A stretch of 64,000 nt of DNA, taken from the NCBI RefSeq assembly GCF_000003815.2, contig NW_023365791.1:104257-168256 (forward strand), given 5' to 3'. Of this stretch, positions 34,690-64,000 are shown piece after piece. Source of the DNA: Branchiostoma floridae (Eukaryota; Chordata; Leptocardii; Amphioxiformes; Branchiostomatidae). The notes beneath the pieces were generated by a model. That model did no database searches and was not told the origin of the DNA. It saw only the letters and a list, made by a program, of their open reading frames with translations. The translations under genes were made by a program, and so were the position numbers. How positions within the stretch are numbered: position 1 is the first letter of the stretch; each line of letters begins with the position of its first letter.

Positions 34690-37667
34690 CTACTTAGGCG
34701 CGGATGGCAATTCATCAGGTACGTTCATTTCATCTAGTATGTCTTTTGCAGAATTGTGGCTCTTTTTATCCGTCTTTTTCCCTTTCTTTTTTATTTCTGG
34801 AAGAGGTGGAGATGGAAGGTTGTCTACTTTTTCTTCTTGTAAAGGTGGAGGTGGAGGGGTGTCTACTTTAGGTGGAGGGGGAAGGTTTTCTTCTTTTTCC
34901 TTTGGTATGGATGGACGTGGAAGGTTGTCTACTTTAGGTGGGGGTGGAAGGTCGCCTTCTGTTCCTTCTGTATCCGTGACATCATTCTCTGATTCCCCCC
35001 TGATTTCGGCGTTCCGTCTCATTATAAACTTAGTGTTCCAGTCCTCGAACTGCAGTTTCAGTTCCTCGCACGTTCTCTGGTGTACCATGAAACCAGTCGT
35101 CCACTTCCCCGCCGGTATGGACAGTTTGGCGATCGTTTCCTCGGTCTCAATCTGCCGACAGTACTCGGCGACCTCGATGTTGACCTCTCGGTAGTAGCTG
35201 ACCTCTTCAAGAAACTCCGGTCCGAGACCCTTGATGGTTTTCCACAGCGTTTGGTTGAAGAAGTCGTACAGCTGGAAGTCTATTTTGTTTATCATCTTTA
35301 GGTTGGAAAGCTGACGACTTCCCATAGGTATGTCCTTATAGCTGTATTAAACACATGGAAAAAAAGCTATCATGGTTTGTAAGGAAGCTCATTGAAGCTC
35401 ACCACTAGAAAATTCAACACAATTGCACAACCGTAGTTGACGTAAAGTCATTCTAGCCTAACAGGCACTAACTTCCCTTAATCAATAAACTATATACCAT
35501 CAAGGAGGTTAAATCAAGACTTGATTTTAACCTCCTTGATACCATTGATACAGTTTACCACTAAATTCCCCAGCTTCAACTGTATGTCTTTACATAAGCC
35601 ATTAATTTCGTCTATTCTTTTATTCTATTTATTTATTGAATGTTCAAACAGCCATTCAAAGACCCATTCAACTCTGTCTAGTTGTTTTTCGAGGGGCCCA
35701 ATCAACAGAAACATGAAATTATCATCATGTTATTACAACGTATGTGTGTAATAAAAATGAATACAGTACCGGTAACGCTTAACGGTCTGGTCCTGGACCT
35801 GATCCTCCTGACCTGAAATATACCTGGACCTGAATTTTCTGTACCAGTACTCAGCCCTAGCTCCTAACTCTTAACAGATAAGGGTATGCAGACAATCTTC
35901 CATGCCCCCCCCCCTCACCTGTAAGTGGTAACAGCCTTGTCCAGGTACAGTATATCCCGCAGCTCCCAGCACATGACGCGCCGCAGCAGCACCAGCGACT
36001 CCGACAGGTGCTCCAGGATCACCATCATACCGAAGTCACGGGTGATGTTCCTGAAATTTTCTATCATAGATAAGACAAGATTACGTTGATGTTATCATCA
36101 GTCCATTAAATCTATAAATATCGAGACATATCTTTTTTTTCAACTTTTTTTTTGATTGTTCGAAATTTCAAACAGTTCATTTTTCTATTATTTAAAGTGT
36201 AAAAAAAATCATATCTAAAAGAGGGCAGTCATGCAGTTTCCTTCGAAATATTTAGGAATATTCATAGCAAAATTATAATTATTTGTCAATAATTGGAAAA
36301 TATTACAAACGTTAGAGAAAAAAAACTGCAGTGAGTTGGAATTGGCTCTATATACCATTACAGTAAAAGACACAATTTGGCCTAAACATAAAGCAGATTC
36401 TTATCTATTGTGTGAAAAACAATTATCATTCAGTTACTATTCATTACCCTTTTTAATGATCTATGTTTATCTACAATTTACTACAATTGTTGTTGTTCAA
36501 TCGCATAATATAATGACATTCTTGCTGTTTTCTTTTTTGACAGTTCTCACCGAGTGATTTTGGCTGGTCGAAGTCTGTTCCCGGTCCGAAGCCGAGGTCC
36601 CGCGCCTGCGCAGACATCCTGACAGACGTGACGAACTGTGTCTCACCGATCCCGCCCTTCTTGTCGGTCAGAGCCGAGGGGTTCTGTGCGATACAAGCAA
36701 GGCTCGAAGTTGTAAACATCATTTAACTGAATTTGAGATGATGTACTTTTATCGATTCATTCGCATGGAATTTTATAATTACTACATTATGTATTATGAT
36801 AGCCTCTGCCGTTTCATCCGGAAATGGACAATACTTGCGCTGTTGCAAAATGAAATATTGATGATAAAACGCACCAACCGTATTCAAATTCTATATGAAA
36901 CTAGCAAAAACCTGATCATTTCAAGGTCTAACTCTAAGCAAGACCTGCCCACATGCAAAATATCAAGACAATCCATTCAGGCCTTTTCAAGTTACCGTAC
37001 GTGTTCACAGTGGACGGACCCAAACGTTCCTATTGAAAATTTGAAGTTTCATGGAGGTAATAAATTGTTTAACATCGTGTTTATTAGCCAATGTTTGTAA
37101 CGGCATTGATGACAATTGGTTTGCAATCCAAATTGAGCCTTGTTCCCAAAGTAGCATGGTCCCTGAAGATGTCAACATGATTCAATGGGCGTTTCATAAG
37201 ATATAACACACCAAAGGTACACATACCTTGAGTATCTTGCTGGCCTGGTTCTTGCCAGTGATGCCGAGCACTTTCCCGACGTCGTAATAATGGAACATGG
37301 ACTTGAAGTGGTTCTCTGGGTTCCGCAGGATGCTGAAGTAGGAGGTGTCCGGGGGCATGACGTCATGTACCTTCCACTTATACGTCATCCCGTGGACGAT
37401 GACGTTGTACCCGCCATCTGCCCAGGGTAGGTCGTCAAAGGTGGCACCCGAGTCTTTGATCCATTTCAGTTCCAACCCTTCGAAGGCATAACAAATAGAT
37501 GTCGTGGATGAATTATATTTGAATATCGTTTACCTGGATGTTTGACCTTCCTAAACGATGTCGTGCGAATGATTAGAAAAAAGATATATTCCTTCAAGCA
37601 GGCATAGCTTTTTCTTGGACCGGAGTGCAGAGTCATATATAATCTGTATAGACTGACAGCAGTAGTT

Positions 37668-45755: not shown

Positions 45756-48501
45756 ATGTTGCGGTCGGTGTTGTTGGTGTTCGCGGTGTTATTCGCCACA
45801 GGTGAGATCACTAAGACGAGTAAAATTTTGTCATGGTCAGTTTGGTGTGTAGAAGTTTATGATTCGCGAAAGTAAACATAGGTTTCGTAATACATGTACC
45901 ATATCCTCGCCCGCGGAACAGGCCCTTACGNNNNNNNNNNNNNNNNNNNNNNNNNNNNNNNNNNNNNNNNNNNNNNNNNNNNNNNNNNNNNNNNNNNNNN
46001 NNNNNNNNNNNNNNNNNNNNNNNNNNNNNNAGACAATGGTACATTCCAGGCGAGTATTAAAACGCTCTTCTAGACGCATGTTACTGTATGTGGTCCAGCG
46101 TAATAAATCTACGCTTTAACTCACCATGTTTATATAAATATATATCACAAATTGCATCAGAAGGAACTTAGTTTGTAATAAAAAATAATGCATATTCATT
46201 GTGGGTCAAAAAGTTTTACAAAACCTGTTTAATGTGCCAATAATTCATCTGACATAAATTATGATAATGAGGGGGGGGCGACATGTGGAACTCGGGATTT
46301 TTAAGCGTAGAATCTAGTCTAACTTACCAAAATAACATAAAATACGCGGCAAGGCACAGCTTTTTTAAAAAGATTTCTTGTTTGGTTACAGAGTCATACC
46401 AATGTATACGTAGCCTCCTTCGCACACTTCGAGTGGGGCTATCTTTATTTTATTTATTCGTTCGGCTGTTTACGGGGCTGCCCAACTAGCCATAGGCTAT
46501 TGCCAAGGGTTAACCCAGCCCCCCCCCCCCCCCTTTATTCGGGGGGGTGGCTGGTTCGTGATTTTCAACGTTGGCTAGGTTCTCTTTAATGTGTCATGAA
46601 AAGGAGTGGATACAAGTATACAGCCTCATAAAAGCTTCAAATTAAGTTCTTACATACACGTACATTCCTACAGTGACAGCTGAGTACTGTCAGAAGTACG
46701 GCTTCTCCTGCCCGCGGAAGAACAGAGGGTTCTTCCTGAACGATGATGATGATGAGATCTACTGTTGTAAAGACAAGACGGGCTGTTGTGACAGCTGTTG
46801 GGACGCCGTGGACACCACTAATTGTGCAAACATCATAAGTACTGCATTAGGAATTGGGTAGGTTTCAATTCAAATTCTTAACCATAGATATACTAGCCTG
46901 GCTAAAACCGCGCCCCTAGCGGTCGGCCCTACAATTGCCGCCGCCCTAGGAGGGGGTAATTAACGCAAGCCAGCGAGAGATTGTGTAAACACAGGCTATA
47001 CCGTTAGATATACAGTTTATCAGCATATTGAACCTTTCAAAACTCGTATTTCGGACGTACTTGTTAGATGGGAGTTAAGTATGTGACAAAATAATGCTGA
47101 AAATTTTCTTTATGTCCGTGAAAGTATATTGTCCTACATGTAGACATATATCTAACGTTGCATGTAAAGATGTACAATTACTGTAGTATTTTGTTATTCG
47201 CACCAATGCTACATAGCAATTTTCATAGCTAAATGGAAGTCTATCCCTCTTCGACGTATACAATCTAGATGTGTATTATCTCTTGTCGTAATCATTGTAA
47301 TGGTTGTTGTTCAACTACATGTTATTTCATTATCTTTTATGACTGTTCAGTACTAGCTAATGTAGTAGTTTTCTTTTTGTTGTAGCACTGCAGTGATTGT
47401 GGGTATCGTGGTGGCTGTTCTAGCGGTGATCACCATTGCTGTGGTACTGTGTGTGTGCTGCTGCTGTCAATGTGCTAAACAGGGACGGAACCAGGGACAT
47501 GTCTACCAGCCACAACCTCAGGGTGGGCACTCTTCTAAAATTAAGTCCTCTTCTAACATAAGGCCACGTTGATTTGATTATATGGATGACATCCGCGCTC
47601 GCACCAATTTTCGGCCATCCCCCCCCCCAAAAAAAAAGTTTTCGACCACACAATAAATTGTGCAAAGCAGCTGTAAAATGAGCACAAATATTCCGTAGAT
47701 TGAAAAAAAGTATCAGAAAACAGATAACTAATGCCATATATAGAATGCCAAAATGAATCTAAAGTAAAAAAATTAGATGTGAAAGGACGGAAAAAAAAAT
47801 CTATTGTTGGTTGGGGGAGGTACCAGTACAGAAAATTCAGGTCCAGAGGATCATGGTATACCATACTATGTGTGTTTAGTCCTATGTTCAACCTTCCTGG
47901 CCACTTTGATTTCATACTGAAGGCAACTTTTTTTTTTTGCCAAACTTTTTTTATTCGCTCGCTCGCATCAGTTTTGGAGTTCCCGGAGGATGTCATCCAT
48001 ATAATCAAATCAACATGGCCTAAATGTATCCATAGTGGGATACCCAATAACGACCTAATTTTCTTCATAGTTATCGGTTCACAGCATTCTACCGCTAGAT
48101 TTAACTAGCTCTTTGCCTGGAATGTTGGAAATGTCTTGCATTTTGAATCTTTTATGTTCTATGATCGGACGATGAACTGTCATTTGGTGATATTTATAGC
48201 TTTTTTGTATGCAGGTCAGCAGATGGTTGTAATGACACAGCAGGGGCAGTATCCCTCCGTCCCTGCCGCACCACCGTACTCACCACCTGACGCAAGCCAG
48301 TACCCCCCTCCAGCAGGGCAGTACCCCCCTCCAGCTGGCCAGTACCCCCCTCCAGCGGGCCAGTATCCCCCTCCAGCTGGTCAGTACCCCCCTTCAGCGG
48401 GCCTGCACCCCCCTCCAGCTGGTCAGTACCCCCCTCCAGCAGCCTACCCACCAGCGCCCCCACCATACTCCCAGGAAACCCCGTACCCACAGAAGATGTA
48501 G
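45756..48501 (+). CDS. Shisa-like cysteine-rich membrane protein with QYPPPAG repeats (Shisa-like D)
   Basis: Exons: 45756-45801 (signal peptide, MLRSVLLVFAVLFAT), 46674-46857 (Cys-rich), 47386-47522 (transmembrane) and 48215-48501 (tail). The joins are GT-AG with phases 1, 2, 1, giving 217 residues. The ectodomain begins VTAEYCQKYGFSCPR, like the paralogue at 30 kb, and has EIYCCKDKTGCCDSCW in place of the usual YCCGTxxxRYCC. The helix is AVIVGIVVAVLAVITIAVVL, followed by CVCCCCQC, a likely palmitoylation cluster. The tail has APPYSPP, about seven QYPPPAG-type repeats and PPPYSQE. The start at 45756 gives a clean signal peptide; an in-frame ATG at 45621 has poor context. A poly(A) signal lies at 48594. 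Intron 1 contains a 100-N gap, intron 3 a PIF/Harbinger-type MITE. Confidence 0.88.
45931..46030. other. Assembly gap (100 N)
   Basis: The gap lies within intron 1 of Shisa-like D. Frames crossing it are artefacts. Confidence 0.99.
46894..46998. repeat. Second copy of the AGCCTG/CAGGCT dispersed repeat
   Basis: It starts TAGCCTGGCTAAAACCGCG and ends TGTAAACACAGGCTA. It shares both ends with the copy at 8462 but has a longer GC-rich middle. It lies in intron 2 of Shisa-like D. Confidence 0.6.
47562..48020. mobile_element. PIF/Harbinger-type MITE with TAA duplication
   Basis: Ends GGCCACGTTGATTTGATTAT and ATAATCAAATCAACATGGCC form an inverted repeat of at least 30 bases continuing through GGATGACATCC. 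TAA lies on both sides. The 459 bp interior has no transposase. It occupies intron 3 of Shisa-like D. Confidence 0.87.
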
Positions 48502-48619: not shown

Positions 48620-49276
48620 GCAGCCATGTATTTCAAACCATATTCCCTTCCCAGAAAAACTTAGCATTTCTCCCGACACCGTGAGTAAAACTTACGTTAT
48701 GTTTAGCTAGGCTACCAGCAACAACAAAGCGTTAAATGATACTCAATATGGTATAGTTTCTGTTTCTCACAAAATCAAGTCGTTTCTTATATTATTAGCT
48801 TCATGAAAATGACTATGACTATAATGTTTAGGGCATGTTAACATTTACAGTATGTATACCAATGCGCACATAATGGCATTGTAAAACTGTCATGGGGCAA
48901 AATGTTCTTGTTTACTGGACAAGCAGTAAAGATCCTATGTCAGCGACGCAGAGACAATTTTTAATATCCTCTTCAATGTGACAAAATGAAACAATATTAT
49001 TACTTTTATAAATGATAAAATGCACTTGTTTTAATTGCTGTTGTACAATCGTATTGTTTGTCACATATTGGAGGAGTTTTTCTATATGATTTAGCTTTCT
49101 TGGTTGAAATACCAATGCGTCTTCTAACCGCTAAATGATGCAATAAAAAGACTTAAAATGTTAAGCCAATTTTAGTAGATGCGTTTCTCTGAGTCCATTA
49201 TTACTACTACTTCTAATAGTGAGCCTATTACTAGTACTGAGCCCATTATTACTACTACATATTCACCCGCTGCTAA
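48620..49276. other. No gene recognised; convergent 3' ends
   Basis: AT-rich region between the plus-strand Shisa-like gene and the minus-strand LRR/Death gene. No clear minus-strand AATAAA was found here. Confidence 0.45.
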
Positions 49277-51376
49277 TCAACTAAGCAAGAACCTATAATT
49301 TTCCTCATCCACGGGAATGTTCTTCAGGTGCTCTGCAAGGCGACCTATGGTGGCTTCCCGACGTTTTTCCCGACGCCAAGTATTCAACATTTCAAAAATA
49401 GCTTGTCGCACGTTGCCCGGATGGTTGCACTTGAATTGGTACAGTTGAGCATCGCTGAATCCAAGTTCAAAGTTGAGTTGCTCCCATTCGTGGCCAAGTT
49501 TAGAAGCAAGTGTCTGAAGCTGCGCTTCCGTCACTGGTTTATTCTGCAAGAAGAAAAATTCATAGATAAGTACTCAGAATCAATGTAAACTGTTTCAAGT
49601 GGGCATTACAAAACAAACAAGAACAATATAATTACACTTCTGGTGTTAAGTCGATGAAATCCAGGTATTAGATAAGATATGCCAAAAAGCTGTTACTCAA
49701 GCAATAGTGAACCATGTGACACTGACGAAAAACAAACGTCTGACCGTTTCCAATTAAAACCATATCCAGTTGCTTAAGTTAACTGCTTTTTGGGACTTCA
49801 GTGTTTTTTCTTTATCGCCTGCTAGCGCCTTTAAATGTGATACATTTAAACATTTATCCGCGTGGTATATATATATCCACCACTTTGAAAACCAGTGTGT
49901 TTGAGAGATATTCATATCCCAGATATGCATAGTTTAGATACACAGGAGTGCATCATACTTTGCATGAGAGATCTCTTTGAACGTATTTTTTCAGGACCTC
50001 GTGGGATTATGTGAGGTTATGGAAATATACGTTACAAGTTTTGATATTTGGAGATTTTTTTATCAACTCGTGCAATCACAAAACTGAAATTCTTCGTTCA
50101 CTTTGCCATTTAAATTCGTTAGAATCATTGGCAGTTGAGATGTATGTTTTTTTGATAGCTGCTTGACTGAGAATGTAGTGAACGCTACCTCAACATTTGG
50201 TATCCTACCACCAGGGTCCTCTTCATCTGGTCTGTACCCAACATTGTCCTCCAAATGAATGGCAGGCCTAGGGTCTGGTGGAGGTCTAAACTTGTACCAC
50301 AAAAATATCAACAGGACAAGAAACAGTATAACCAACAGTACTGCCCCTAAGACACATACGATCCATATAAGACGATCGTCATGATATCCGGATGACGAAG
50401 GTCGGACGGTTCTGTGGTAGGATGTTGACTTTGGTGCTATGAAGGGTTTAGTAGAGCTAGCGTTCATTCCTAGCGTTATTTGGTTCTCTTTCGATCCAGT
50501 TGTGAGATGGTTCTGTGTGCTCAGAACGGGTGTGGTATCTGATGTTCCACTAGACGTTTTGCCATGAATAGATTGGCTGGAGTACGCAATAGTTGTCCTT
50601 GTGCTGTGTACACTCACCCCTATTGTAGGCGTTGTTACTTTAGCTGCTGTGCTATCTGTAGTTCTATGCGTAGTGCAGGCCATGTCAGCAACGTCGACGT
50701 TATCAATGGATCGGCCAATGAGATGCTCCGGTGAAGCACACGTGACATTTTCCCGAAGGGAGATTTCTAAAGTTGTTTCTGACATCCATTCCTTGAAACC
50801 TCGAAGATGACAGTCACATGACCAAGGGTTGTTGTTTAGTTCAATCCTTATTATGAACCCCAGACTACTGAAGAAGATGGCGTTCACTATGCGAATGTTG
50901 TTTTCATCTAGCGCCAAAATTTGCAGATTGTCAAGCCGCTCTAAGCCGGTTGGTACTTCAACTAGGCTGTTTTTATTTAGGAAAATGTATTTAAGCTTTG
51001 GTGAATTTTGAAACGCGTCGTTGTCTACGAACGAAATATTGTTTGAAGCGAGACTGAGGATCTCCAAATTTGGCAAGTTTGCGAATGTTTGTCCGGGTAC
51101 GGTTTTCAAGTCGTTTCTTGGAATGTAAAGTTCTTTGAGATTGGGCAATGCTGCGATGTGAGAATTATTGATTTCGGCGATACGGTTTCCGTCCAAATAG
51201 AGTTTTTGTACAGTCTGAGGTATATTGGGAGGAATCGCTATAAGGTCTTTGTTGATGCAGCGCACTTCTGTACCGCTAGGGCACCTGCACACTGAAGGAC
51301 ACTGCTGACTCATATTGAACACTGTGGCGAGGGTTAGGAAAAGAAATAGAGCAGGGATCTTGCCAATAGACTCCAT
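49277..51376 (-). CDS. LRR transmembrane receptor with spliceable Death domain
   Basis: The main exon, read 51376 to 50102, gives a signal peptide (ESIGKIPALFLFLTLATVF), an LRR N-cap (CPSVCRCP), about five LRRs (LYLDGNRIAEI, LYIPRNDLKTVP, LSLASNNISFV, IFLNKNSLVEVP, LALDENNIRIV), an LRR C-cap (NNPWSCDCHL), a Ser/Thr-rich stalk, one helix (WIVCVLGAVLLVILFLVLLIFLW) and a short tail. A phase-0 donor AAA|GTGAAC at 50102 can join the acceptor ttcttcttgcag and exon 49277-49543. That exon is a Death domain: LQTLASKLGHEWEQL, GFSDAQLYQF, MLNTWRREKR, ATIGRLAEHLKNI. The joined form is 513 residues. Without splicing, translation runs 12 residues to a stop at 50063 (437 residues). The start is the first ATG with a signal peptide; an acceptor near 51465 shows an upstream untranslated exon. 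Death-domain receptors recruit apoptotic or NF-kB adaptors; the ligand is unknown. The weak donor makes the join inference. Confidence 0.8.
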
Positions 51377-51479
51377 CCTTTTTGTGTATTGATACCAATT
51401 GTTGGTGGTGGTGGTGGGGGAGGGGGGAGAGCTCCTCAACTCTAACTATGACGTGATTAGAACCTGCAAAGAACAGAAT

Positions 51480-54205
51480 TGGGCATCATAACATATTTAA
51501 CGTTATTAATGATCTTTTAAGAATTGCACAACAAGCACAATTTGGATGACACTATAATGGCAGTCCCCTCACATCCCTTTCCGTGAAAAAGGGACAAAGA
51601 AGCACCAGCCATAGTATGTACTCCCTGTTCTTTCTAGAAACACAAAATTCGCAAAGAACATGCACAAAGCTTTTTTAGCCATAGCAAGCATTTGCGCTCC
51701 GTGCCTCGCTAGTCAATACTATCAAACGTTACTGTTGTCTTTCATTCTATTACAATATTCGCCTTGGCTTTCTTTCTAGTCGTTGTTGTTTCTTATTTGC
51801 ACATTTGTGTAAATGCTGATGAAATAGGAACCAGTGATTTACATTTTATCATTGACGAAATGTCTAGTAGATATGTATAATACCCTTGGTAGAGAACAAC
51901 AACACCAGGCCAAGCTAACTATGACAACTGGCATGTTTCTTTGTTGACAAAGCTTGTTATCTTCAGTTTGCCTTATGAACTCGAAGTGTCTTCAGGCTAT
52001 GAAAAGTGCTTCGTCATTCACGCAGATTTTGGGTGTCATCTGATATTTCCGAGTCATTGAATACACTTTTGTCACACAAAAGTGGGGATCCAATACCCCC
52101 CCCCCCCAAAAAAAAAGAACACCAATGCTAGACAATACATACATGTCATATGACCTTAACTATATTTAAGGGCAACGGGAACTGTGATGAGTCATCACAT
52201 GCCTCATACCTAACAATACATCAGCTGGGGCATGCTACCGCGCTATTCCGTGTACCATATAGTTTCGTGTTAACTATCCAACACAAATAAATATTAAGTC
52301 AACATTGTATTTACTAGAAAGAGAAATGTCACCAGCGTTAACGTTTTCTATCATATACTAGCAGATTTGAACGAAGTTAAGGTTATGGTTCTAGGGAGAA
52401 TTCAAAACTTCAATGTGAAACCCAACGTATATTCATGACTCAGACCATCAGAATTATTTTATCAAAGTGTGGATAACAGTACAATTATATCAATAAGTGC
52501 AGTGTGACAGAAGTAAATACATATAGGATCTAAAAGCCACAGGGCACTGTCGAAATGTATAGCATGTAAAACACACAGACACACAGACAGACACACAAAC
52601 ACACACACACACAAAATACACACACACACACACAAAATACACACACACACACATTAACCATAAAATAAAGTGGATTAAGAAGACTAAAGAGTGAACCCAC
52701 ACTATCATACCTGTATACATATGCTCACCTGAAACGTTCTTTCAAGCCAGGGACGCCACTTGAATGATTATTGACAATTACCATATATCTCATAAAGATA
52801 TGATTACAACAAGCAAATTGTCTTTATACCTAAGTGCAACATGCACTGCAACAGGTACAGAAACTGGAATTTCAGGAAATGTTCGAATGAAAAATCCCAT
52901 CATGCAATTGGGCGGGGACTTTCATAAGCTATTTTTAGAGTCTCGAGCAATGCAGAAAACAAATTTTATTGAACATGAATATTAAACACAACTTCGTTCC
53001 CCCTCACCTCCCTTAACCATAACCAAGCCCGAGACAATAATTACCTGCTTTGGTTCATATTAACGGTGATTTGACTTGTCGAACTGGCTCCGTGTGACGT
53101 CAGTACCACCTGACAGTGTACAGACTGTTTGTAAACACCGTGTTGAGGAACAATGAACCTGTCCTTCCGTCACTCAGGTAAGACAAAAAGCGCCGCCTAG
53201 TGATCTTGTCTGGAACACTCAAGCTAGTGCTATGTGTGTGGAACGCTCTAAAGTTCTTAGTCTCCACCACACTGACTACGCTGGCTGTTATAGGGAGAAT
53301 AATTTGCCAGGTGAGTTTTGCTACCAGAGGAGTTGGTCGGCCGGAGGGAAACATGAACCTAAGCGTGGACTGCATGACTCCCCTGGTTGAATTCTACGAT
53401 CCCCGTACCCCTGTAGGAAGGCCTGGTGGAGGCTGCCAAGTCCTAAAGGCAAACAAACATATAAATAAACTAACTAACAAGCAAACACACAAGTACACAC
53501 AGAAGTACACACACATTTACAAATTAGTGGTATGTCACTGGCGAACCTATGAACGAAATGTGTTTAAGTACGCGGCTCAGGACAAATTCGTTACAACCAC
53601 ATTTATAGATCCAATGTGTTGAGATTATGTACAATTTATACTCACATCGATGCTTATAAAGTTAACGTGTAATTTACTAACCCCACTCTGTCGGTTTATA
53701 AAATGGCATGTCTCTAAAGCTTCAAATCAATAAGCCTAAATATCTTTCAGCTCTATCTTACTTCCGATCTAAAGTTGGCCTTTCCTTGAACCTGAACGCG
53801 AAATGACCGTGGAGCTATAAAATGGTCAATATAAACAGACAGAAAAGAACGTAATCATCATTACCTGTGGTTTCAGATGCTGTGTTAAAATTTATCTTTG
53901 TCCATTTCATTAGCGCGAGGATTGTTGTGTACCGTTACCAACAGTCTTTCATTTTGTCGATGAAGTTTGGGCATCGCGTTACATTACATAACTCTTATGA
54001 GACAGTAACTTATTAAAGATAGTAGATTTTATCGATGTCTGGAAAATCTTAAGTTAATTTTGTTTGTTTGTTTATTTGCTTGTTTATAGAGATTTTCATT
54101 AGTGTTACATATGTGATTGTGTTCATTTGCTTATTAAATGCATACTATCTGATGTATGAATGTTCATAATTTTCGGGTTGACTTGATAAACCTTGATAGC
54201 TGACT
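51480..54205. other. Upstream of the LRR/Death gene, no gene recognised
   Basis: It should hold the 5' untranslated exon and promoter of the LRR/Death gene, which I could not place. A (CA)n microsatellite with CAGA interruptions lies at 52571-52655. Other frames are short and unlike known proteins. Confidence 0.45.
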
Positions 54206-54215
54206 TGAAAAGTTC

Positions 54216-54415
54216 TACTCTTCACGCAAAAGTTAGGATCCGCGGCCGGCTAGTTTTTTTTTTTTACATCTTTTATGCGTTTCTATCGGGCTTTCTATTC
54301 TGTCAGGTTTTCGTTTTGTCCACTAGCAAGGAAACCAAACATAGTGGAAAGCCAGATAAAACGGCCTAAAAGACGTAAAAAAAACAGCCGAAACCTAACC
54401 TTTTTTTGGAGAGTA
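54216..54415. mobile_element. Mutator-like MITE, decayed left end
   Basis: The right end TTTGGAGAGTA and left end TACTCTTCACGCAAAAGTTA pair imperfectly. Arms GTTAGGATCCG/AACAGCCGAAACCTAAC and TTTTACATCTTTTATGCG/GACGTAAAA match the element at 43377. No 9 bp duplication survives. Confidence 0.75.
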
Positions 54416-54995
54416 GTCTTCATAACTTTAAAACCCACTAAAATGATTTGCTAGACATCTGGAACAGTCGACCACCAGATATAAACACAGCGCCAACTTA
54501 AGCTTCCTTTGAGACATAACAGAAACAACCAAAACTATCGGACTCGAATCATACAGCAGTACTCACTATACACTTGTGTATTATGTTTATTTTTTGCATT
54601 TTGCATGTGTAAAATATGTGTGAGCTTTCATTAATAAACAATGGTTTAAAGAACAAATAATTGGCACGAATTAGATGTGAGGATAGCATACACAACGTTG
54701 CAGCGCTCTGTATGTTAAAAATCAAAGACCTTTTTTCGACGGGCTAACATCTCGTTGACATGTCTTGATGAGGTGTTGGTCCTGATATCGACCGTTGACA
54801 ATCATTACCAGGATTTGCAGAGAAGACACACGATATCGACAACCCGTCATAGATTCATGTTTCATCGGATTATCCAATATGGGCCCTTTGGGTCTTCTAC
54901 CAGAAATTGACAGAAACACAAATTTGTTGGGAGTGAGACGAAATGGCGGTCAATTCCAATCGCGGAGTTAAGCCAGGTTTACGCCAGTAGTGAAG

Positions 54996-55370
54996 CCCCC
55001 TTTTACACTAGAGGCCGCTGCGATGACTGAGCGACCGTCTGGCGACTGAAGGTGGTGTCTCACTGCACTTTGGGCACCGGTGCGGCACTGTGAGGTTCGT
55101 TCACTGCGGCACTAGTTGTGTTATTTTCGCCGATTTTCTTTTTATAATTTAGATGTTGCGTAATACGTAAAGAAATATGACTTAGAAGACAACAAAATAC
55201 ACAAAACGTTAGGAACTTCGTTCTTTATCTCTGAAACTCGCTGAGTAAACTTTCGAACCCCGCAGTGCTGCACCGGTGCCCCAAGTGCAGTGAGATACCA
55301 CCTCAAAAATTTGACAAATCCAATGTTGGTCCCTGCACGGTCGCTCAGCGAACGCCGTCTAGTGGAAGTG
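54996..55370. mobile_element. Inverted-repeat element, CCCCCTTTTACACTAGA ends
   Basis: Left CCCCTTTTACACTAGAGGC pairs with GCCGTCTAGTGGAAGTG. GAGCGACCGT on the left pairs with ACGGTCGCTC on the right, and CACCGGTGC words lie inside. The core GACAACAAAAnACACA is shared with copies at 58372, 59058 and 62098. Confidence 0.7.
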
Positions 55371-55740
55371 GAGAGAATTGCGTAGGAATCGAATTTCATT
55401 ACACGGCTTCAACTCGCTGTGGAATTACCCCGTCCTCAGAGATGACAGATAAGGTGTGATTCTTCTATCTGGTTTAGCCCAAAGGGAGAAATGAGGCCCA
55501 GCCGATCTTTGGCACCTAGGAATATCGGTCTGAGACTCAGAACTCTTCACAGGGAAGGAGGGAGGAGGATTAATTGGCGAGCGGCCAGTAGGTTAGGTTG
55601 GAGGGCATGAGTATTAAAGCCGGGGGTACGGGCTTCTGTAGACAGACGACATCTCTGACCTCCCCATGTAAATGGATGGCTGTGGAGGTGAAGGTCTATG
55701 TAGACCGGAGTCTTTCGTTTGATTTTACATTTCTTCCAAA

Positions 55741-56175
55741 GTTACGTACGTAGGTACAGGTACAGGTACGTAGGTACAGTACATGTACATGTACAGGTAC
55801 AGGTACATAGGTACAGGTACAGATACATAGGTACAGGTACAGATACATGGGCGTAGGTATAGGTACAGGTACGTAGGTACAGGTACAATTACGTAGGTAC
55901 AGATACAGGTACAAATACTTGTAAGTACCTAGGTACGGGTACAGGTACGTAGGTACTGGTACAAGTACAAAGGTACAGGTACAGGTACTGGTGCACGAAC
56001 AGGAACTAGGTACAGGTACGTAGGTACATACAGGTACAGGTACAGGTACGTAGGTACATACAGGTACAGGTACATGTACGTAGGGCCTACGTACATGTAC
56101 CTGTACAAGTACGTAGTTACGTAGGTACAGGTACAGGTACAGATACGTAGGTACAGGTGCCTACGTACAGCTAGC
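55741..56175. repeat. Degenerate GGTACA/GTACGT array
   Basis: About 430 bases built almost only from GTACAG, GTACGTAG and GTACAT words. Every word is near-palindromic around GTAC. Frames through it read as Tyr/Leu/Cys repeats and are not genes. Confidence 0.95.
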
Positions 56176-57150
56176 TACAGGGAAACTCGATGTTCAGGTC
56201 CGGACCTGCACTTTAACTGCAATTTTACATGTATCTGTGCAGGTTCAAGGTTTAGGTATACAGCCCTAGCTGCTAGAATGACGAATATGGGCACATTTGA
56301 ACCACTCTATATCCAAGGAAACCGTTGATCAAGTCTTTGATCTTGGTCTTTCATTTTTTCTCAAGCCTTTTCTTTTCCTTTTTTATTGGTCTCACCACGC
56401 ACGGCCACTCGATATATCACCATTCGCTGGGTGAATGGTTCCCATTTACTATTTCTGTGATCGCAACAAGATTACCAGACTGTGCGATGCGAACTTTTGA
56501 TCCAATTTCCAGGCATCCAACTTTATAAGGCCACAATAAGTCACGGCGAGACAGGAATCCGATAGACTACACACTTCCATCGGGGCAAGTTGAATGGCTG
56601 GCTGACCTGTGATTAAAATTACGGGGGTGGGACGAGCTGGATCGATGGTGGTCCGAGGATGAATCCCTGCGATCCCACCGGCCATGTTTCAGGAGACAGT
56701 TAGTGCTTGAGGTCAAGCCGCCATAACTTATCATTAGCCTGTACCAGACTACGGGATAGGGCGGGCAATTTATCATTGCAGCGGGGTGGGGGAATCATTA
56801 AGCGGTTGTAAAGCTACTGTCTTCACGGTACTGTCTTGGCTTTCGGCATACAGTTTGTGCATGTATGTATATAAGTCAGATTGACGGTTGAATAAGAGAC
56901 GGTTGTCATGTAAAATGCATAAGTTGGTCATTCTGGAAGGCATCCAAAGCCAGATGGGTTTTTGGTTCTTAACCTGGAAAAATAATCGAAGTTCGTTGGT
57001 TGGGTAATCTGTAAGGTTTATCATTACTAGTACTGTCTGGTCTTTTCCGTGGCATTAACCGGAGGCACAACGGCTGATCATGAGTGGTTGTTTATAGGGG
57101 AAGAGGCGCAGCTCGACTTCAGTCTGTTTATTTTTCGTCTTCTTCGTGTT
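56176..57150. other. No gene recognised
   Basis: An AGGTCCGGACCTGCAC cluster at 56191-56206 resembles the hAT element at 34213. Otherwise there are only short frames. Confidence 0.45.
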
Positions 57151-57345
57151 AAGGCCATTATCATTTGATTATATGGATGGCACCATAAAACTCGTGCGAG
57201 CGTGCGAAAGCATGCACTGCTCGACTTCAGTCTGTCTATTCTATCTATTTTTCTTCTCATCCATGTTGTATATAAGACCATGGTCATATGGATGGCACCC
57301 TAAAACCGATGCGAGCGTGCGAAGAGATCGTTGGACAAAGATAGT
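57151..57345. repeat. PIF/Harbinger-type MITE fragments
   Basis: Two segments (from 57151 and from 57278) carry TTTGATTATATGGATGGCACC-like ends followed by GCGAGCGTGCG. Both resemble the ends of the 47562 element in the same orientation. They appear as a decayed tandem pair. Confidence 0.6.
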
Positions 57346-58365
57346 CATTATTAAGAAGTCAACATGTCAGTGCCATGGTCTGGAAGATTGACCAAATGAC
57401 TGAACACATGGTATACTATGTAGAGTCTATCAACCAATACAGTATTCATTTCTTTCACATTATCTTCTCTGACTTTTGAAGATGTATATCATTAGTACAC
57501 GTTTTCGAATATTTTCAATTTAAGATACATAATTGCCAAATCTCGCAGCTTCTTTGCAGGATTTACAATATGGGCGTAAACTTTTTTAGGACACAGACAG
57601 CTGTTGATGCGCGCGTATGCGGTCTATAAAGAAAGCACGTGGGACCTAATGAAGTTTTCATTGAGTTCAACTCGAAAGCCTATAACGCTGGTAACTATCA
57701 ATCCGTTTCTCCTTTCGGTACATCGGCACCTTCCATCACCGGATCATCCATATAACGATCGATCCCTATTCATTATTTACACGTCTCCTTACCGATAGTC
57801 AATGTCCTGTGAGTCAACGGCTGATCATTAATCACCACGGGCGGGTCCGGCCATAGTTTCAAAGTGATGAATGACTTTCCTTGTTGTGCGGGTCTTTGCA
57901 TATATCCTTTCTTATTCGAGTAATGCTTTCCTGCGGATGAAAATGTTAGGAACTAGTATGAAGCCGACCCATGCCACATCTATTATTGACGTCTGTATCT
58001 GGCTGTATATGATAGACAGCTAGTGATATTGCACGGCGTATGAATCTTGTTACGTCTTCTGCGTCATTTATTTTAGTACGCCAGATGAAGAAAGGAACCA
58101 TGCAATAATGACTGGAGACCGATATTACGTTTCTGCGACGAAACCTTGGTCGTTTTATTTGCTTCAAGACAAAAGCACTGTGACACTGCACTCAAGTTAG
58201 TACCTTATTTCAACAGTGCCACATACAATGAACAACGATAAACTTCATAAATTTAGCAATAATGCTAACAATGAATGAAGAAATGGAACAAAAATATGGT
58301 GCGCAAACGTCCCCGTGTAACCGTTTATGTAATAATTTGAAGATGCTGTAAAATGTAAAGGTACT
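57346..58365. other. No gene recognised
   Basis: Mixed composition with short frames only. No splice-consistent coding structure found. Confidence 0.45.
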
Positions 58366-58369
58366 ATGA

Positions 58370-58483
58370 TTAAAAGACAACAAAATAAAGTGTAAAAAAA
58401 ATGGTACTTTCTCTCTGAAATTCGTTAAGTTCGTCAAACTTTTGGTCATTCCGCGGTTGCATCCTGTTGTGGAAAGGGGGTAT
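58370..58483. repeat. Truncated copy of the GACAACAAAAnACA element family
   Basis: It contains AAGACAACAAAATAAAGTG, TTCGTTAAGTTCGTCAAACTTTTGGTCATTC and a terminal GTTGTGGAAAGGGGGTA. These match the right half of the elements at 58943 and 61983. Confidence 0.6.
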
Positions 58484-58721
58484 TAGTCGTCCGGGAGTAA
58501 TGAAATCCTCTACTTGCTTTCTGTTCAAAGAAACTTTCCTCAAAAGACTAGTAATCAAAGGTTCACAAGCGCCGCAGACGGGACGACTTCGTGTGAAATT
58601 CCCTTTGATACTTTCCCGTCACTGCAGCTTACTCCGTCTAATTCAAGCCGGCGTCGTCTTACATTTACGTGAGAACCGTTATTCAGCGATATGGAGAAGT
58701 GACTGAAACCGTTACATGTTA

Positions 58722-58759
58722 TCAAGGAGGTTGAAAAAGGGGTTTTTCAACCTCCTTGA
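58722..58759. mobile_element. 38 bp hairpin element with 5 bp duplication
   Basis: TCAAGGAGGTTGAAAAA pairs perfectly with TTTTTCAACCTCCTTGA around GGGG. The flanks are TGTTA on both sides. It has the same end as the element at 35500 but a different loop. Confidence 0.68.
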
Positions 58760-58942
58760 TGTTATCGACAAAAGTCAAGGTAATGCCTGTACCTTTAAAA
58801 GCACTGGCGAGACGCTGAATCTTTGAGCACTGAAACGTACACGGTTCTGAGAATCAGAAAACGTGATTTGAATCCTGCCAATGTTTCTCTGAAAAGACGG
58901 AACATGAAAGACCTTTCTCAACATACAAGCTATATCCTAAGG

Positions 58943-59181
58943 CCCCCTTTCCACTTGACGGCGATCGTGCTGCGCTCTCACTGCGACCTAGATAGGATAT
59001 GTGTATCCTTCGCTTTCACACAGAGTATGTTATACAAATTGTAAAAGTGTGACAGAGAAGACAACAAAACACACAATGGGTAAAAAGATTTGTTTCCTGT
59101 CTATACATTTCGTTGAGAGATATGTCAAATTTGACGTCGCAGAGAGAACGCGGTGAGATCGCCGTCCTAGTGGAAAGGGGG
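58943..59181. mobile_element. Inverted-repeat MITE, CCCCCTTTCCACT ends
   Basis: CCCCCTTTCCACTTGACGGC pairs with GCCGTCCTAGTGGAAAGGGGG, continuing through GATC. The interior has GAAGACAACAAAACACACAA. Nearly full length at 239 bp; no clean target duplication is visible. Confidence 0.78.
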
Positions 59182-59431
59182 TATAACGGAATAAAATATT
59201 CCACGATGGTTTTCGGTGTAAGATTGTTGGAATTCATTCGGAATATGTATTTTCTTTGATGCTTTTATGGAGGAAAGGAAAGACGTGGCATTACAAAGAA
59301 AGTTCACCTAAGCCTTCTATTTCTACCCAAGGAAATGGAAACATGAATCTTGAGCCTGTGTTCTAAAGGCGCCGCCAGAATACCTTTGCTGCTGGGATAC
59401 AATCACTGTCGTGACTGCCGCCGTACTACAA

Positions 59432-59826
59432 GAGTACTGTCGGCCCTTCAGACAGCGAGGAGACAGTAAATGATGTAGTGGATTTTGTAAGACTCGCGAA
59501 GGATATCGATGGACTGAAACTTTCTGCTCTCTTCACTGTGATGAATGCGTAGCGGAGAGTTTCTACGCATTCATAGATTTGCATGTTGCATTACTCTCGT
59601 TCAAGTGTCTACGTATACTGTACCCATCCTTCCAACGCCCCAAGAATATATTTCTTTTACTCTGGTATCCGTAACGACCACAAAAAAGAGACAGTACTGT
59701 CGGCCCATAAGACAGCGAGCAGACAGTAAATGATGTAGTGGATTTTGTAGGACTCGCGAAGGATATCGATGGACTGAAACTTTCTACTCTCTTCACTGTG
59801 ATGAATGTGTAGCGGAGAGTTTCTAC
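59432..59826. repeat. Tandem duplication, ~257 bp period
   Basis: A block of about 130 bases from GTACTGTCGGCCC through GCGGAGAGTTTCTAC is present at 59433-59562 and 59690-59826 with few differences. The sequence between the two copies is unique. Confidence 0.85.
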
Positions 59827-59844
59827 TCCGCAGGTTTGCCAAGG

Positions 59845-60104
59845 GCTCGATCGATGTGAGGGAATTCGTGGAGCGACAGGTCTGGTTCTGGAGAAATGTC
59901 ACATGTGTAAACCGTCACCATGCAACAAAGAGACACATTCTGATAAGAAAAGCCCCTTCACACGGGAATAGGAATGAGCCGGTATGCCGTCTGAATAAAA
60001 TTCTTTGTATATTGCTGAGAATTTGTAGAACGACAGGTGTGGTTCTGGAGAAATGTCACATGTGTAAAACGTCACCATGCAACAAAGAGACACATTTTGA
60101 TGAA
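59845..60104. repeat. Repeated GGAATGAGCCGG/GTCACATGTGTAAA segments
   Basis: TGGTTCTGGAGAAATGTCAC...CAACAAAGAGACACAT occurs at 59882-59938 and 60038-60095, and again at 61040-61097. GGAATGAGCCGGnATGCnGT recurs at 59971, 60974 and 61136. These are overlapping pieces of one element family on both sides of the LINE fragment. Confidence 0.7.
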
Positions 60105-60951
60105 TGAATGACCTTTATTGTACATTTGTGCTCAAACAAGCTAAGTACAGGTCGTAGAGCTAGTGATAAGGTACAATTTTGACAAAAAAGGTATCTTATC
60201 ATCTCTACATATGCTAATACATTCAAGTATGTACAAGTTCAACTTCTTCTCGCTTCTTAAAACAGTTATAAACATAAGGACAAATGGAATCAATTATATA
60301 TGGCTTATCTAATTGCATGAGAAATATAAATTTTTCCGTGGTATTCAAGTATCGGAAATTTGGGAACATAAGTTGTATATTTTCAAAAAGGACGTTTCTT
60401 TCGTTGTTGTATAAAGTACATTCAACAATAAAGTGACACTCATCCTCTATCTTATTCAAGTTACAGTATTGGCAGATTCTTTCTTCCAGAGGAATGTGGT
60501 TATGTCGGCCTTTTTCAATGTGGAGTCTATGTGAACTAATGCGGAGCTTTGTGATGGCTGTTCTGTGCCGAATGTTTGCAATCTTTAAGTAATTCTCGTC
60601 GTTGTAAGTAGTTTTAAGTAATCTGTATGTTCGTAATTTGTTGTTGCTGCGCATTGCTGTTACGAAAGATTGAAGGTACATATCTTTTAAACGTTGGTCG
60701 ATGGATGGAATTATTTGTGATGGATTTAGGACAGATGATATGGGAGAGTGCCAGACATAGCCAAAACCACATTCCTCTAGCGTCTTGCGGACTCCAGAAG
60801 CCCAGCATTTAGCGCCTAATGTGTCCAGTTTACGTTGACACAAAAGAGCGTCTGCTGATAGACTATCAGCTGGCACGTTCTGGCGTACTCTAATATACTG
60901 TTTGATGGCGTTAAGGGATGCTTCTAGTTGATAAGAAGGACTGCATTTTAA
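60105..60951 (-). mobile_element. 5'-truncated LINE, C-terminal end of the reverse-transcriptase ORF
   Basis: The open frame ends at 60223 and can be followed upstream to about 60951 (CSPSYQLEASLNAIKQYIR). It carries a C-terminal zinc-knuckle-like motif, CQYC...ECHFIVEC, preceded by LRISSHRLHIEKGRH. This layout is common at the end of non-LTR retrotransposon ORF2 proteins in marine invertebrates. The reverse-transcriptase domain itself is absent. The 3' end carries AATAAAGGTCATTCATTCA, a short terminal repeat seen in CR1/L2-like elements. The clade cannot be fixed from this piece. Confidence 0.75.
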
Positions 60952-61124
60952 AGGCCCCCTTCACACGAGATACGGAATGAGCCGGAATGCTGTCTGAATA
61001 AAATTCTTCGTATATTGCTGGGAATTCGTAGAGCGACAGGTGTGGTTCTGGAGAAATGTCACATGTGTAAAACGTCATTATGTAACAAAGAGACACATAT
61101 CTGATAGGAAGGACAGTATTCTTA

Positions 61125-61522
61125 AACGAGAATCGGAATGAGCCGGTATGCCGTCTGAATAAAATACTTTTGTATATTCCTGGGAATTCTTAGTATATTC
61201 TAGAAATTCTTCACTGCATTCCAGATATTTGTGCAAATTCTTGTGGCCGTCCCGAATGTTTTTGTCACGCTCAAAACTTTTGAGGTGCATTTGAGGCATT
61301 CAAAATATATTCTAGCTATTCTAACACTATCTAACTGCAGTACGACCGCATTCTAAGGCATTCAAACATTATTCGAAACAATTTGATCTCATTCGATGTA
61401 GAACCGGTCGGCCACAAGAAAGAACACAAATATCTGGAACGCAGTGAGAATTTCTAGAATATACAACGAATACCCAGGAATATACAAGAATTCTCATTCA
61501 GTCGGCATTCCGGCTCATTTCG
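61125..61522. mobile_element. ~400 bp foldback element
   Basis: AATGAGCCGGTATGCCGTCTGAAT on the left is matched by ATTCAGTCGGCATTCCGGCTCATT on the right. Inner arms AATTCTTCACTGC and GCAGTGAGAATTTC, and CAGATATTTGTGC and GCACAAATATCTG, also pair. A partial copy precedes it at 60952-61100. Confidence 0.72.
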
Positions 61523-61982
61523 CCCCTTGAAGAGGATGTGGCATGAATTTTGCAAATTCTAATCACTCCGGTTGGTTCTACTTGATTCCTGATGCTTCGG
61601 TTTCAGTGTGAAGGCCCTATAACTTCCTTTCGTATGAAAAGAAGATAGAGAGATGCTTTGTTGCTTTCTTACATGTAGATTTACATGTTGAATCACTCTC
61701 TTGTTCAAATGAGACCATAGAGAAGAGACAAAAGAAATGGTCGTTCTTCTCTATGTACGAACAGTAATTCTTCATTCTTCCTTTTGCAGAGAAACCTTTT
61801 CAAGAACCGGATACAATCCATTATCTGTAGGCACAGGTAATAAACACAACGCTGGCGCTACGTTTTCATACGCACATTAATCTCCACTGTCGTTCTGCCT
61901 CACAAAGTTTGCTTGCATCAATCTTTATTCTCTAACGTTATATAAGTCTCCTTTGCGTGATACACTTTAACTACTATGTAGG

Positions 61983-62636
61983 CCCCCTCTCTACCAGACG
62001 GCAATCGTTGAGCGACCATGCATTAACCAACATTGCATTTTTGTGACCTTTGATTTCATAATAGGAATAAGATTCAAGACGTAAAAGTATGATTTAAACG
62101 ACAACAAAACACACACACACAACGTAAAAAGTTTCTGGGGGGGGGGGGGCAGACCAAATCTATTTGTTGCTTTTCGGATTTTTCAGGAAAAGAATTGGAC
62201 CAACAGGTCGAAAAAAAATTAAGATGATTTTTTTAAAAGGTCTGAGGTGAAGATATACGACCTAAATAACCCCAAAACAACAGCCTGATGACTTGAATGG
62301 TCCGTTATATACAATGAATCCACATTTCTTTGATTGGTTACTAATGTTCTGAACAAAAGGCATTGTTTTTAGACTGAAATTATATGTGTGTGGCTCTGAA
62401 TGGCAATATTTACAGGTTTGTGATAGCAAAACCTGTATCATTTTTTTTTCTCGGGAGTTTTTCAATTATGAAATTTTTGTTTCTTTTTTGAAAATGAATA
62501 AAAAGAGGCACAAACAAATCCGAGAAGCAACAAATAAAATTGATGTGGCCTTTTCTATGAATTCGCTGAGCAATCTGTAAAATCTTTGGTCATTCGGCTG
62601 TCACAGCGGGGTCGCAGCCTCTATTGAAAAGAAGTT
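61983..62636. mobile_element. Longest copy of the GACAACAAAACACACA element family
   Basis: The left end CCCCCTCTCTACCAGACGGC with CGTTGAGCGACC pairs loosely with GGGGTCGCAGCCTCTATTGAA on the right. The core ACGACAACAAAACACACACA is at 62098. An extra ~250 bases inside, absent from other copies, may be a nested insertion. Confidence 0.6.
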
Positions 62637-62639
62637 GTA

Positions 62640-63725
62640 AGAGCCCAACGGTTCTACTGGCAACACTTCAAAATAAAGATCAACGGAGTTCAACGACTCA
62701 GCCATCAAGCGCGCCCATCAACCATCAGCCGGACAACCACAACTGACCTTTATGAAGGGACGAAACACCGTAATTGATTCCACGGAAGGCTTAAGAGATT
62801 AGGACGGTAAGACAGATAGAGCCTTTATTAAAGTGCAAGATTTGTGAGCATATTCCACACATCAGTCATAAACGCTTATACCCCCAGAGCCTCTCTATAC
62901 TAGTACATTAACGTTGTTGTTATGATGGATCTATCCGTAATAACTTATCCTACAGGGCTACGACAGGCTCAACAGTTTGTCTTCTGTCCCCGTATCGGTT
63001 TTTCCCTCTCTCTTATCAAAGAGATTGATCATACATATGAATAATAAGAGTATCCCAGCCGATTCCACGGCCTAGGCAAATGTTTGTAAGAAATCCAATT
63101 CATTTTGTTTATCGAGTATCGTATCTTTTTGATCAGGAAGAGATTTGATCTTCGAGAAACGTAATGAATTGGAATCTGATCAGAAATAGACGTTCCCGAG
63201 ACAGATGGAATTTGGTCGTTATTTTCGGGCTTTCATCACCATTTTCCACAAGACTGCTCTTTAAGTATACCACATAGAGGCTTACAACATGGTCATTTCG
63301 CGGTAGGCAGTATAGTGTGGTTATCTCTACCATTGGCAGGTTAACTGCGCGTTTAATTCATGCGCGTCTTTTTGTAGGTTTTCACCGGTTACGATTTCTT
63401 AGTACGTCAATTTACCAGTTCGGCCACTTCAGATTGCTTTAAAAGCTAGTGTCCTTTCTTTTCTAGTTCTTCTTTCTTTCGTTCTTCTGTTTTTTATGTA
63501 CTCTTTTGTTTCGTTGAAATTCTAAAGTTTCGGGGTTAAAGATTTCAGTTCAGATAGAGCAAGCCATGTCGTATCCCGTTAATATGCAAAGTACATATTA
63601 GGTCAAACTAATCTACTGTTGATCGGTTGTTATGACATCATTACGCTGAACCGACCACGGCGAGATTACATTAGACCTCTATAATTTCTTCTGTTGATCA
63701 AGCAGGGTTCACTTAATGATGTTGT
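62640..63725. other. No gene recognised
   Basis: Low-repeat sequence with short frames only. It could be regulatory DNA for a gene outside the window; nothing in the sequence proves it. Confidence 0.4.
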
Positions 63726-63731
63726 GAGTAG

Positions 63732-63978
63732 GTGATCATCAAGCTCCAAGGATAGACGAGGATACAGATTACAGCATAAACGTATTTATCAAATGTAAAA
63801 GACAATGAAAATTGTGACTTCATGAAAGAAAATGAACTTGGAAAACTGGTCTATGTGATCATCAAGCTCCAAAAATAGACGAGGATACAGAGTACAGCAT
63901 AAACTGTACTTATAAAAAGTAAAAGACAATGAAAATTGTGATTTCTTGAAAGAAAATGAACTTGAAAAACGGGCAATA
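63732..63978. repeat. Tandem duplication, ~123 bp unit
   Basis: Two copies starting GTGATCATCAAGCTCCA (63732 and 63856) are nearly identical through GAAAGAAAATGAACTTG. Differences are a few substitutions and single-base indels. Confidence 0.9.
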
Positions 63979-64000
63979 TACCTACGTACATGTATTGTTT

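What the first reader, a model, noticed from the sequence alone, without database searches (positions are those of the whole stretch)
49277..51376. LRR receptor joined to a Death domain
The LRR ectodomain with caps, mucin-like stalk, single helix and cytoplasmic tail can splice in phase 0 to a canonical Death-domain exon behind a strong acceptor. An LRR-transmembrane-Death receptor is not a standard vertebrate architecture. It would link Toll-like pattern recognition directly to death or NF-kB signalling. Lancelets are known for new combinations of LRR, TIR and Death domains, so this is plausible.
Basis: partly seen in the sequence, partly recalled or inferred. Interest (0 to 1): 0.7.

Follow-up and report, generated by a model that had tools for sequence, protein, structure and literature searches.

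The report
LRR surface receptor with Death domain
A lancelet-like genome appears to encode a cell-surface receptor that joins a leucine-rich-repeat sensor through one membrane helix to a cell-death signalling domain, and the same unusual layout is found in five other genes of that genome, once in a single unbroken reading frame.

Summary
On the minus strand, 51376-50063 is a 437-codon LRR receptor (signal peptide by eye, LRRNT, LRRs, LRRCT, Ser/Thr-rich stalk, one TM helix, tail). A Pfam Death domain (6e-13) lies 558 bp after the proposed donor, behind a strong phase-0 acceptor. Joining 50102|49543 gives 513 aa. The junction alone is weak evidence: the donor is mediocre and other phase-0 donors exist. 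Paralogues in the same genome carry the argument. Of 15 Death-exon relatives (E<=1e-6), 5 have an LRR-TM part on the same strand or in the same frame. One (C18) encodes signal peptide-LRR-TM-Death in a single 349-aa ORF; a second does so from its last LRRs onward, behind an assembly gap. Two duplicated three-exon genes have in-phase junctions and dN/dS 0.31. Control, small: 0 of 14 other Death exons. So LRR-TM-Death is a real layout here, and the window gene very probably has it. Its LRR type and intron phase differ from the C18 genes, suggesting a separate fusion. The window Death domain is CRADD/RAIDD-like, not MyD88- or IRAK-like; a CARD-Death adaptor is the likeliest partner, but a test of known CRADD contact residues was inconclusive. 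No RNA. No paper found describes it.

The parts
51464..51465 (-). AG of a likely acceptor; the exon would start at 51463, before the ATG; an in-frame stop at 51448 makes 51376 the first usable ATG of this exon
   Evidence: read from sequence; upstream stop; acceptor not scored
51302..51376 (-). signal peptide (aa 1-25), ATG with A at -3 and G at +4
   Evidence: by eye
51218..51301 (-). LRRNT cap (aa 26-53)
   Evidence: Pfam PF01462 E=0.0016, below cut-off; cysteines
50807..51214 (-). leucine-rich repeats (about aa 55-190)
   Evidence: Pfam LRR_8 4.6e-25; PDB matches LGR4, LRRC15, FLRT, TLRs
50675..50806 (-). LRRCT cap (about aa 191-234), CDC...C...C
   Evidence: sequence; Pfam PF01463 E=0.083, below cut-off
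50378..50671 (-). Ser/Thr-rich stalk (aa 236-333)
   Evidence: 40% S+T
50288..50368 (-). single transmembrane helix (about aa 337-363)
   Evidence: hydropathy 3.57; helix in a model of low overall confidence
50102..50287 (-). cytoplasmic tail up to the proposed donor (aa 364-425)
50063..50101 (-). read-through tail (12 aa + stop) of an unspliced 437-aa form
49544..50101 (-). proposed phase-0 intron, 558 bp; donor AAA|GTGAAC, acceptor TTCTTCTTGCAG
   Evidence: frame
49656..49990 (-). dispersed repeat inside the proposed intron: all 52 non-self DNA matches of the locus fall here
   Evidence: query 1511-1845
49277..49543 (-). Death-domain exon with stop codon (88 aa)
   Evidence: PF00531 6.1e-13; CRADD 3.1e-12
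50189..50189 (-). alternative phase-0 donor GAG|GTAGCG (drops 29 aa of the tail)
50618..50618 (-). alternative phase-0 donor GGG|GTGAGT (would remove most of the stalk and the TM)
49538..49543 (-). AATAAA at the first six bases of the Death exon; could end the unspliced form
49030..49035 (-). ATTAAA, possible poly(A) signal 3' of the Death exon (another begins at 48965)

Best explanation
The locus encodes a 513-aa single-pass receptor: LRR ectodomain, Ser/Thr-rich stalk, one TM helix, and a cytosolic CRADD/RAIDD-type Death domain added through a phase-0 intron. Most likely mechanism (inferred): ligand or partner binding by the LRRs clusters the receptor, the Death domains nucleate a Death-Death assembly with a CARD-Death (RAIDD-like) adaptor, and the adaptor's CARD recruits a caspase or NF-kB branch. 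With five genes on C18 it makes six of this layout found in the genome. Shown by sequence: each domain, the frame compatibility, and the layout in a single ORF in a paralogue. Inferred: that this particular junction is used, the partner, and the outcome.
For: Domains in the window. In-frame junction with a strong acceptor. No own start for the Death exon, and no other Pfam domain over cut-off on that strand up to 64000. A 349-aa signal peptide-LRR-TM-Death ORF at C18:6969158-6970207, and at C18:10037572-10038309 an ORF running from the last LRRs through TM to Death. In-phase LRR-TM, linker and Death exons at C18:1.485 and 1.505 Mb (all junctions phase 1, corresponding sites in both copies, dN/dS 0.23 ectodomain, 0.31 Death), and in-phase LRR-TM and Death exons at C18:6.966 Mb. 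5 of 15 Death relatives at E<=1e-6 have an LRR-TM part against 0 of 14 control Death exons. Window Death domain: CRADD 3.1e-12; profile of nine relatives: CRADD 1e-18, PIDD 4e-12. Tandem Death exons on C5, with one upstream exon tested and found to be a CARD (1.7e-16), supply candidate adaptors.
Against: No transcript evidence. The donor is mediocre. The window acceptor is phase 0, while 11 of 12 scorable relatives, including the three spliced C18 genes, have phase-1 acceptors as best site. The window LRR matches only two of the five C18 genes at 1e-4 (26-27% identity, L033 and L035) and has an ordinary LRRCT. The gene has no close copy in the assembly (next 30% for LRR; at most 45% for Death; by DNA only the intron repeat), so selection on it could not be tested. 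CRADD residues known for PIDD binding: 3 of 7 kept, no more than the 27 of 78 overall. For the L033 Death domain alone CRADD (3.3e-5) is hardly ahead of THOC1 (5.2e-5) and RIPK1 (8.1e-5). The Death tree is unresolved. The control is weak: 8 of 14 had only 1.5 kb flanks; against the six 3-kb controls alone p=0.26.
Confidence: 0.75

Rival explanations
1. The LRR-TM gene is complete without the Death exon (437 aa, stop at 50063), and the Death exon is the last exon of another gene whose other exons were not recognised.
For: Mediocre donor; an AATAAA at 49543 could end the short transcript; phase 0 differs from the C18 genes; a dispersed repeat lies between the two; some LRR relatives on C18 and C218 show no Death match in their frame.
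Against: No other Pfam domain over cut-off on the minus strand up to 64000; no start in the Death frame; only short ORFs in the intron; the layout is real in paralogues.
Confidence: 0.12
2. Both forms are made: splicing gives the Death receptor, and intron retention with early polyadenylation gives a 437-aa decoy without Death domain.
For: Open tail to 50063, weak donor, AATAAA at the start of the Death exon.
Against: No RNA; the AATAAA is also coding sequence and may be coincidence.
Confidence: 0.3
3. The receptor signals in a Toll-like way, its Death domain entering a MyD88/IRAK-type or FADD/RIPK1 assembly, not a RAIDD-type one.
For: LRR ectodomain resembles TLRs and other LRR receptors; RIPK1 and FADD come next after CRADD; for L033 the lead of CRADD is slight.
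Against: For the window domain CRADD leads by about six orders of magnitude; MyD88 and IRAK are absent from the 30 matches at E<=1.
Confidence: 0.25
4. It is an adhesion or guidance LRR protein with a Death tail (a dependence receptor, as UNC5 and p75NTR are held to be; recalled), not an immune sensor.
For: Short LRR whose PDB matches include LGR4, LRRC15, FLRT and LRRTM; long stalk.
Against: The C18 relatives look like a duplicating family, which fits immune receptors better; neither point is decisive.
Confidence: 0.25

Closest known systems
CRADD/RAIDD (CARD-Death adaptor)
   Same: Death domain: 27 of 78 residues identical, best PDB match
   Different: no CARD; here on a membrane receptor
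PIDD1 (LRR-ZU5-Death, cytosolic; recalled)
   Same: LRR and Death in one protein; Death profile match 4e-12, though the window domain alone gives only 0.023
   Different: no ZU5 found; here a TM helix and LRRs that would be extracellular
Toll-like receptors
   Same: LRRs with caps, one TM helix, cytosolic signalling domain
   Different: Death in place of TIR; few LRRs
TNFR-family death receptors
   Same: single-pass receptor with cytosolic Death domain; loci L028 and L037 of this genome have related Death exons near TNFR-like exons (TNFR repeats by eye)
   Different: LRRs, no TNFR repeats
Amphioxus hybrid genes TNFR-caspase, LRRs-caspase, death-NACHT, TIR-SAM (PMC2575513, passages)
   Same: lancelet domain shuffling that shortens an immune pathway
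   Different: LRR-TM-Death is not in the passages read; figures and supplements not seen
Lancelet RIPK2-like LRR-Death-Kinase (PMC11747288, passages)
   Same: LRR plus Death in a lancelet protein
   Different: has a kinase; the passages mention no TM

Membership tests
Toll-like receptor | cytoplasmic TIR domain | tested here: not met
   no TIR in the gene or on the minus strand 49277-64000
Toll-like receptor | LRR ectodomain with caps and one TM helix | tested here: met
   caps below Pfam cut-off, recognised by cysteines
TNFR-type death receptor | cysteine-rich TNFR repeats | tested here: not met
TNFR-type death receptor | cytosolic Death domain behind one TM helix | tested here: inconclusive
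   present if 50102|49543 or 50189|49543 is spliced; no RNA
PIDD1 | ZU5 between LRR and Death, no TM | tested here: not met
   no ZU5 match; TM present
CRADD/RAIDD | N-terminal CARD | tested here: not met
   no CARD match on the minus strand to 64000; a CARD is found at C5
CRADD/RAIDD | Death domain of the CRADD type | tested here: met
   best PDB match 3.1e-12; contact residues inconclusive, 3 of 7; tree unresolved
LRR-TM-Death genes of C18 (this genome) | LRR, one TM helix and Death in one protein | tested here: inconclusive
   same layout if spliced as proposed; one ORF in L027, and in L029 from its last LRRs
LRR-TM-Death genes of C18 (this genome) | same LRR subfamily, extra-cysteine LRRCT, phase-1 intron where spliced | tested here: not met
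   LRR match to two of five only, 26-27%; ordinary LRRCT; phase 0 against phase 1

The most novel reading that the evidence does not exclude
Lancelets have built, at least twice (window gene and C18 family), a surface counterpart of PIDD: LRR-TM-Death receptors that gather CARD-Death (RAIDD-like) adaptors directly, giving an extracellularly triggered PIDDosome-like caspase platform without TIR, MyD88 or TNFR.
Probability: 0.25. Interest if true: 0.75.

Novelty: new variant of a known kind. Interest (0 to 1): 0.58.

Why it matters
It would be a receptor class in which Toll-like recognition and death-receptor signalling sit in one chain, a link that vertebrates make through separate adaptors. 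A one-ORF gene makes the layout independent of gene prediction, so it can be cloned and tested directly. It also looks like a case where one kind of signalling domain was joined to different LRR receptors within one genome.

Tried and rejected
Structure prediction without an alignment gave low confidence (Death pLDDT 54.5; LRR-TM pLDDT 46.4); no fold search was made. The Death tree did not resolve (its row top7 was translated on the wrong strand and is meaningless). In the acceptor script the rows L009 and L020 were read on the wrong strand (seen) and are not counted; L012 and L015 are the one-ORF genes; 12 of 15 relatives remain, 11 of them phase 1. The strong donor 50618 was considered as the true exon end and set aside: it would discard 172 open codons (chance 2e-5) holding a TM helix. 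The first Fisher test used a wrong denominator (5 of 13); the correct one is 5 of 15 against 0 of 14, two-sided p=0.042, and is weak because 8 controls had 1.5 kb flanks. CRADD contact residues as proof of a RAIDD-type partner: not enriched. A paper on amphioxus immune genes (PMC2493400) is not held. Literature: ten searches, nine on this layout or related Death proteins, one (86) on the RAIDD-PIDD interface; no LRR-TM-Death receptor was seen in the listings, or in passages of the ten papers opened. Supplements, figures and most full texts were not seen.

Full report
What is in the window. The minus strand 51376-50063 reads as 437 aa within a 460-codon open frame; 100 Markov simulations of the window gave at most 233 codons. 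It holds a signal peptide (by eye), an LRRNT (CPSVCRC), LRRs (Pfam LRR_8 4.6e-25), an LRRCT (CDC...C...C), a stalk with 40% Ser+Thr, one TM helix and a short tail. The caps fall below Pfam's cut-offs and are recognised by their cysteines. 49543-49277 encodes 88 aa with a Pfam Death domain (6.1e-13, over cut-off).

The junction. 50102|49543 spans 558 bp, is in phase and gives 513 aa. The acceptor ranks in the best 0.5% of 3595 AG sites of the strand, the donor only in the best 11% of GT sites (the position weights are a recalled consensus). Two other phase-0 donors exist: 50189, of similar score, and 50618, the best of the region, which would discard the TM helix. Phase agreement is therefore weak evidence by itself. 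The Death frame has no ATG before the domain, so some upstream exon is needed; a Pfam scan of the three minus-strand frames from 49277 to 64000 finds nothing over cut-off but this LRR gene and this Death domain (one further match, Haem_bd 0.038, is below cut-off). Short exons could escape such a scan.

The genome. The window lies at C233:104257-168256 of a 513,431,437-base assembly in 431 contigs, which by size and 19 large contigs fits a Branchiostoma assembly (recalled; not proven). The family search scored 150 Death matches out of 588 candidates. The window's LRR part and Death exon each have only themselves as a close match; the next are 30% and at most 45% identical. By DNA, 52 non-self matches were found and all lie in 49990-49656, inside the proposed intron: a dispersed repeat. 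So there is no allele or copy with which to test selection, and the stretch between the LRR and Death exons carries repeat sequence rather than a recognisable exon.

Paralogues that show the layout. One search gave 15 Death-exon relatives at E<=1e-6 (150 of 194 candidates scored, so a lower bound). I took 9.9 kb (3.6 kb for one) at all 15, in 14 loci. Five of 15 have an LRR-TM part. L027 (C18:6969158-6970207) is one open frame of 349 aa with signal peptide, LRRNT, LRRs, LRRCT, TM helix and Death domain (Pfam Death 1e-13; its LRR matches are below cut-off; its LRR part is 49-55% identical in tblastn to those of L029 and L038). L029 (C18:10037572-) has its last LRRs, LRRCT, TM and Death in one frame behind an assembly gap. 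L038 (C18:6.966 Mb) has an LRR-TM exon and a Death exon whose best acceptor and second-best donor join in phase 1 over 379 bp, giving 423 aa. L033 and L035 (C18:1.485 and 1.505 Mb) are a duplicated pair with an LRR-TM exon, a 108-nt linker exon and a Death exon; both junctions are phase 1 and the sites correspond in both copies. Between the copies dN/dS is 0.31 overall, 0.23 for the ectodomain, 0.23 for TM and tail, 0.31 for Death with C-terminus, 0.81 for the linker. The other ten relatives: two Death exons of the C5 cluster (three in tandem; the one upstream exon tested is a CARD, 1.7e-16), two Death exons behind TM-LRR-ROC-COR frames on C12, two near TNFR-like exons (by eye), four not assigned.

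Control. None of 14 other Death exons (8 with 1.5 kb flanks, 6 with 3 kb upstream) has an LRR match in tblastn at 1e-4. 5 of 15 against 0 of 14 gives two-sided p=0.042; with the six longer controls only, p=0.26. The control is small; the one-ORF gene is the stronger argument.

Same layout, probably a different parent. Among the five C18 genes the LRR parts are 35-55% alike in tblastn pairs (86% for L033/L035); the window LRR matches only L033 and L035 (26-27%) and a further LRR frame in locus L027 (23%), not the L027 one-ORF gene, L029 or L038. It has an ordinary LRRCT where theirs carries extra cysteines, and a phase-0 acceptor where 11 of 12 scorable relatives have phase 1. I infer a separate fusion of a related Death domain, but the Death tree is unresolved: by path length the window domain lies nearest a C5 Death domain of the CARD cluster.

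Which pathway. phmmer of the window Death domain against PDB sequences: CRADD 3.1e-12, RIPK1 1.9e-6, FADD 2.4e-5, TNFR1 7.5e-5, PIDD 0.023; MyD88 and IRAK not among the 30 at E<=1. A profile of nine relatives (window, five C18, three C5): CRADD 1e-18, PIDD 4e-12, RIPK1 1.4e-11, FADD 4e-11. One C5 domain alone: CRADD 2.7e-12. L033 alone: CRADD 3.3e-5, THOC1 5.2e-5, RIPK1 8.1e-5, so no clear preference. Of the seven CRADD residues named as hot spots for PIDD in PMC11405013 (passages), the window keeps three (Y146, K149, V156) and the other eight domains two to four, no more than overall identity predicts. A RAIDD-type assembly is thus the leading guess for the window receptor, not a result.

Literature. 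PMC2575513 (passages) reports lancelet hybrids such as TNFR-caspase (supported by cDNA) and LRRs-caspase. PMC4284660 (passages) reports that lancelets gain domain pairs at more than 10 per Myr, that shuffling is biased to 1-1 phased exons, and that transposon fragments are enriched in translocated regions; the window's phase-0 junction is outside the main route, and its intron holds a repeat. PMC11747288 (passages) mentions LRR-Death-Kinase. PMC3196919 (passages) reports a FADD-caspase-8 pathway in amphioxus. I found no LRR-TM-Death receptor in ten searches (listed in Tried and rejected); supplements and most full texts were not read.

Verdict. The window junction itself still needs RNA.

Noticed in passing
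window 46646-48501 (+): Exons of a cysteine-rich, single-TM, (PPPAGQY)n gene that looks Shisa- or WBP1-like (recalled), convergent with the LRR-Death gene; no Pfam match.
   Followed up: partly
window 49656-49990: Dispersed repeat in the proposed intron, found at many places of the genome and at some of them on both strands nearby; perhaps a small inverted-repeat element.
   Followed up: partly
window 10631-13177 (+): Exons of a glycosyltransferase family 8 gene (Glyco_transf_8 2.5e-8), possibly of the XXYLT1 kind (recalled).
   Followed up: no
window 34690-35346 (-): Exon resembling the end of galactose-3-O-sulfotransferase (1.9e-5, below cut-off) with a long proline-rich extension.
   Followed up: no
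L026:1488-4994 (-) and L032:1197-4715 (-): Frames of 1169 and 1173 aa with an N-terminal TM (by eye), LRRs, ROC and COR, followed by a Death exon: membrane-anchored ROCO-Death candidates.
   Followed up: partly
L025 (C5:12391000-12400900): Three related Death exons in tandem, with a CARD exon upstream of the first (1.7e-16): RAIDD-like adaptors, perhaps expanded.
   Followed up: partly
G000 C18:6977262, 10066403, 10072974; C218:53767: Relatives of the C18 LRR ectodomain without a Death match in the same frame: the LRR family may carry different tails.
   Followed up: no
window 49538-49543 (-): AATAAA forms exactly the first six bases of the Death exon; could act as poly(A) signal of an unspliced form.
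   Followed up: no
window 60223-60960 (-): Frame that looks like the C-terminal end of a LINE protein (by eye); Pfam gives only a weak LicD match below cut-off.
   Followed up: no
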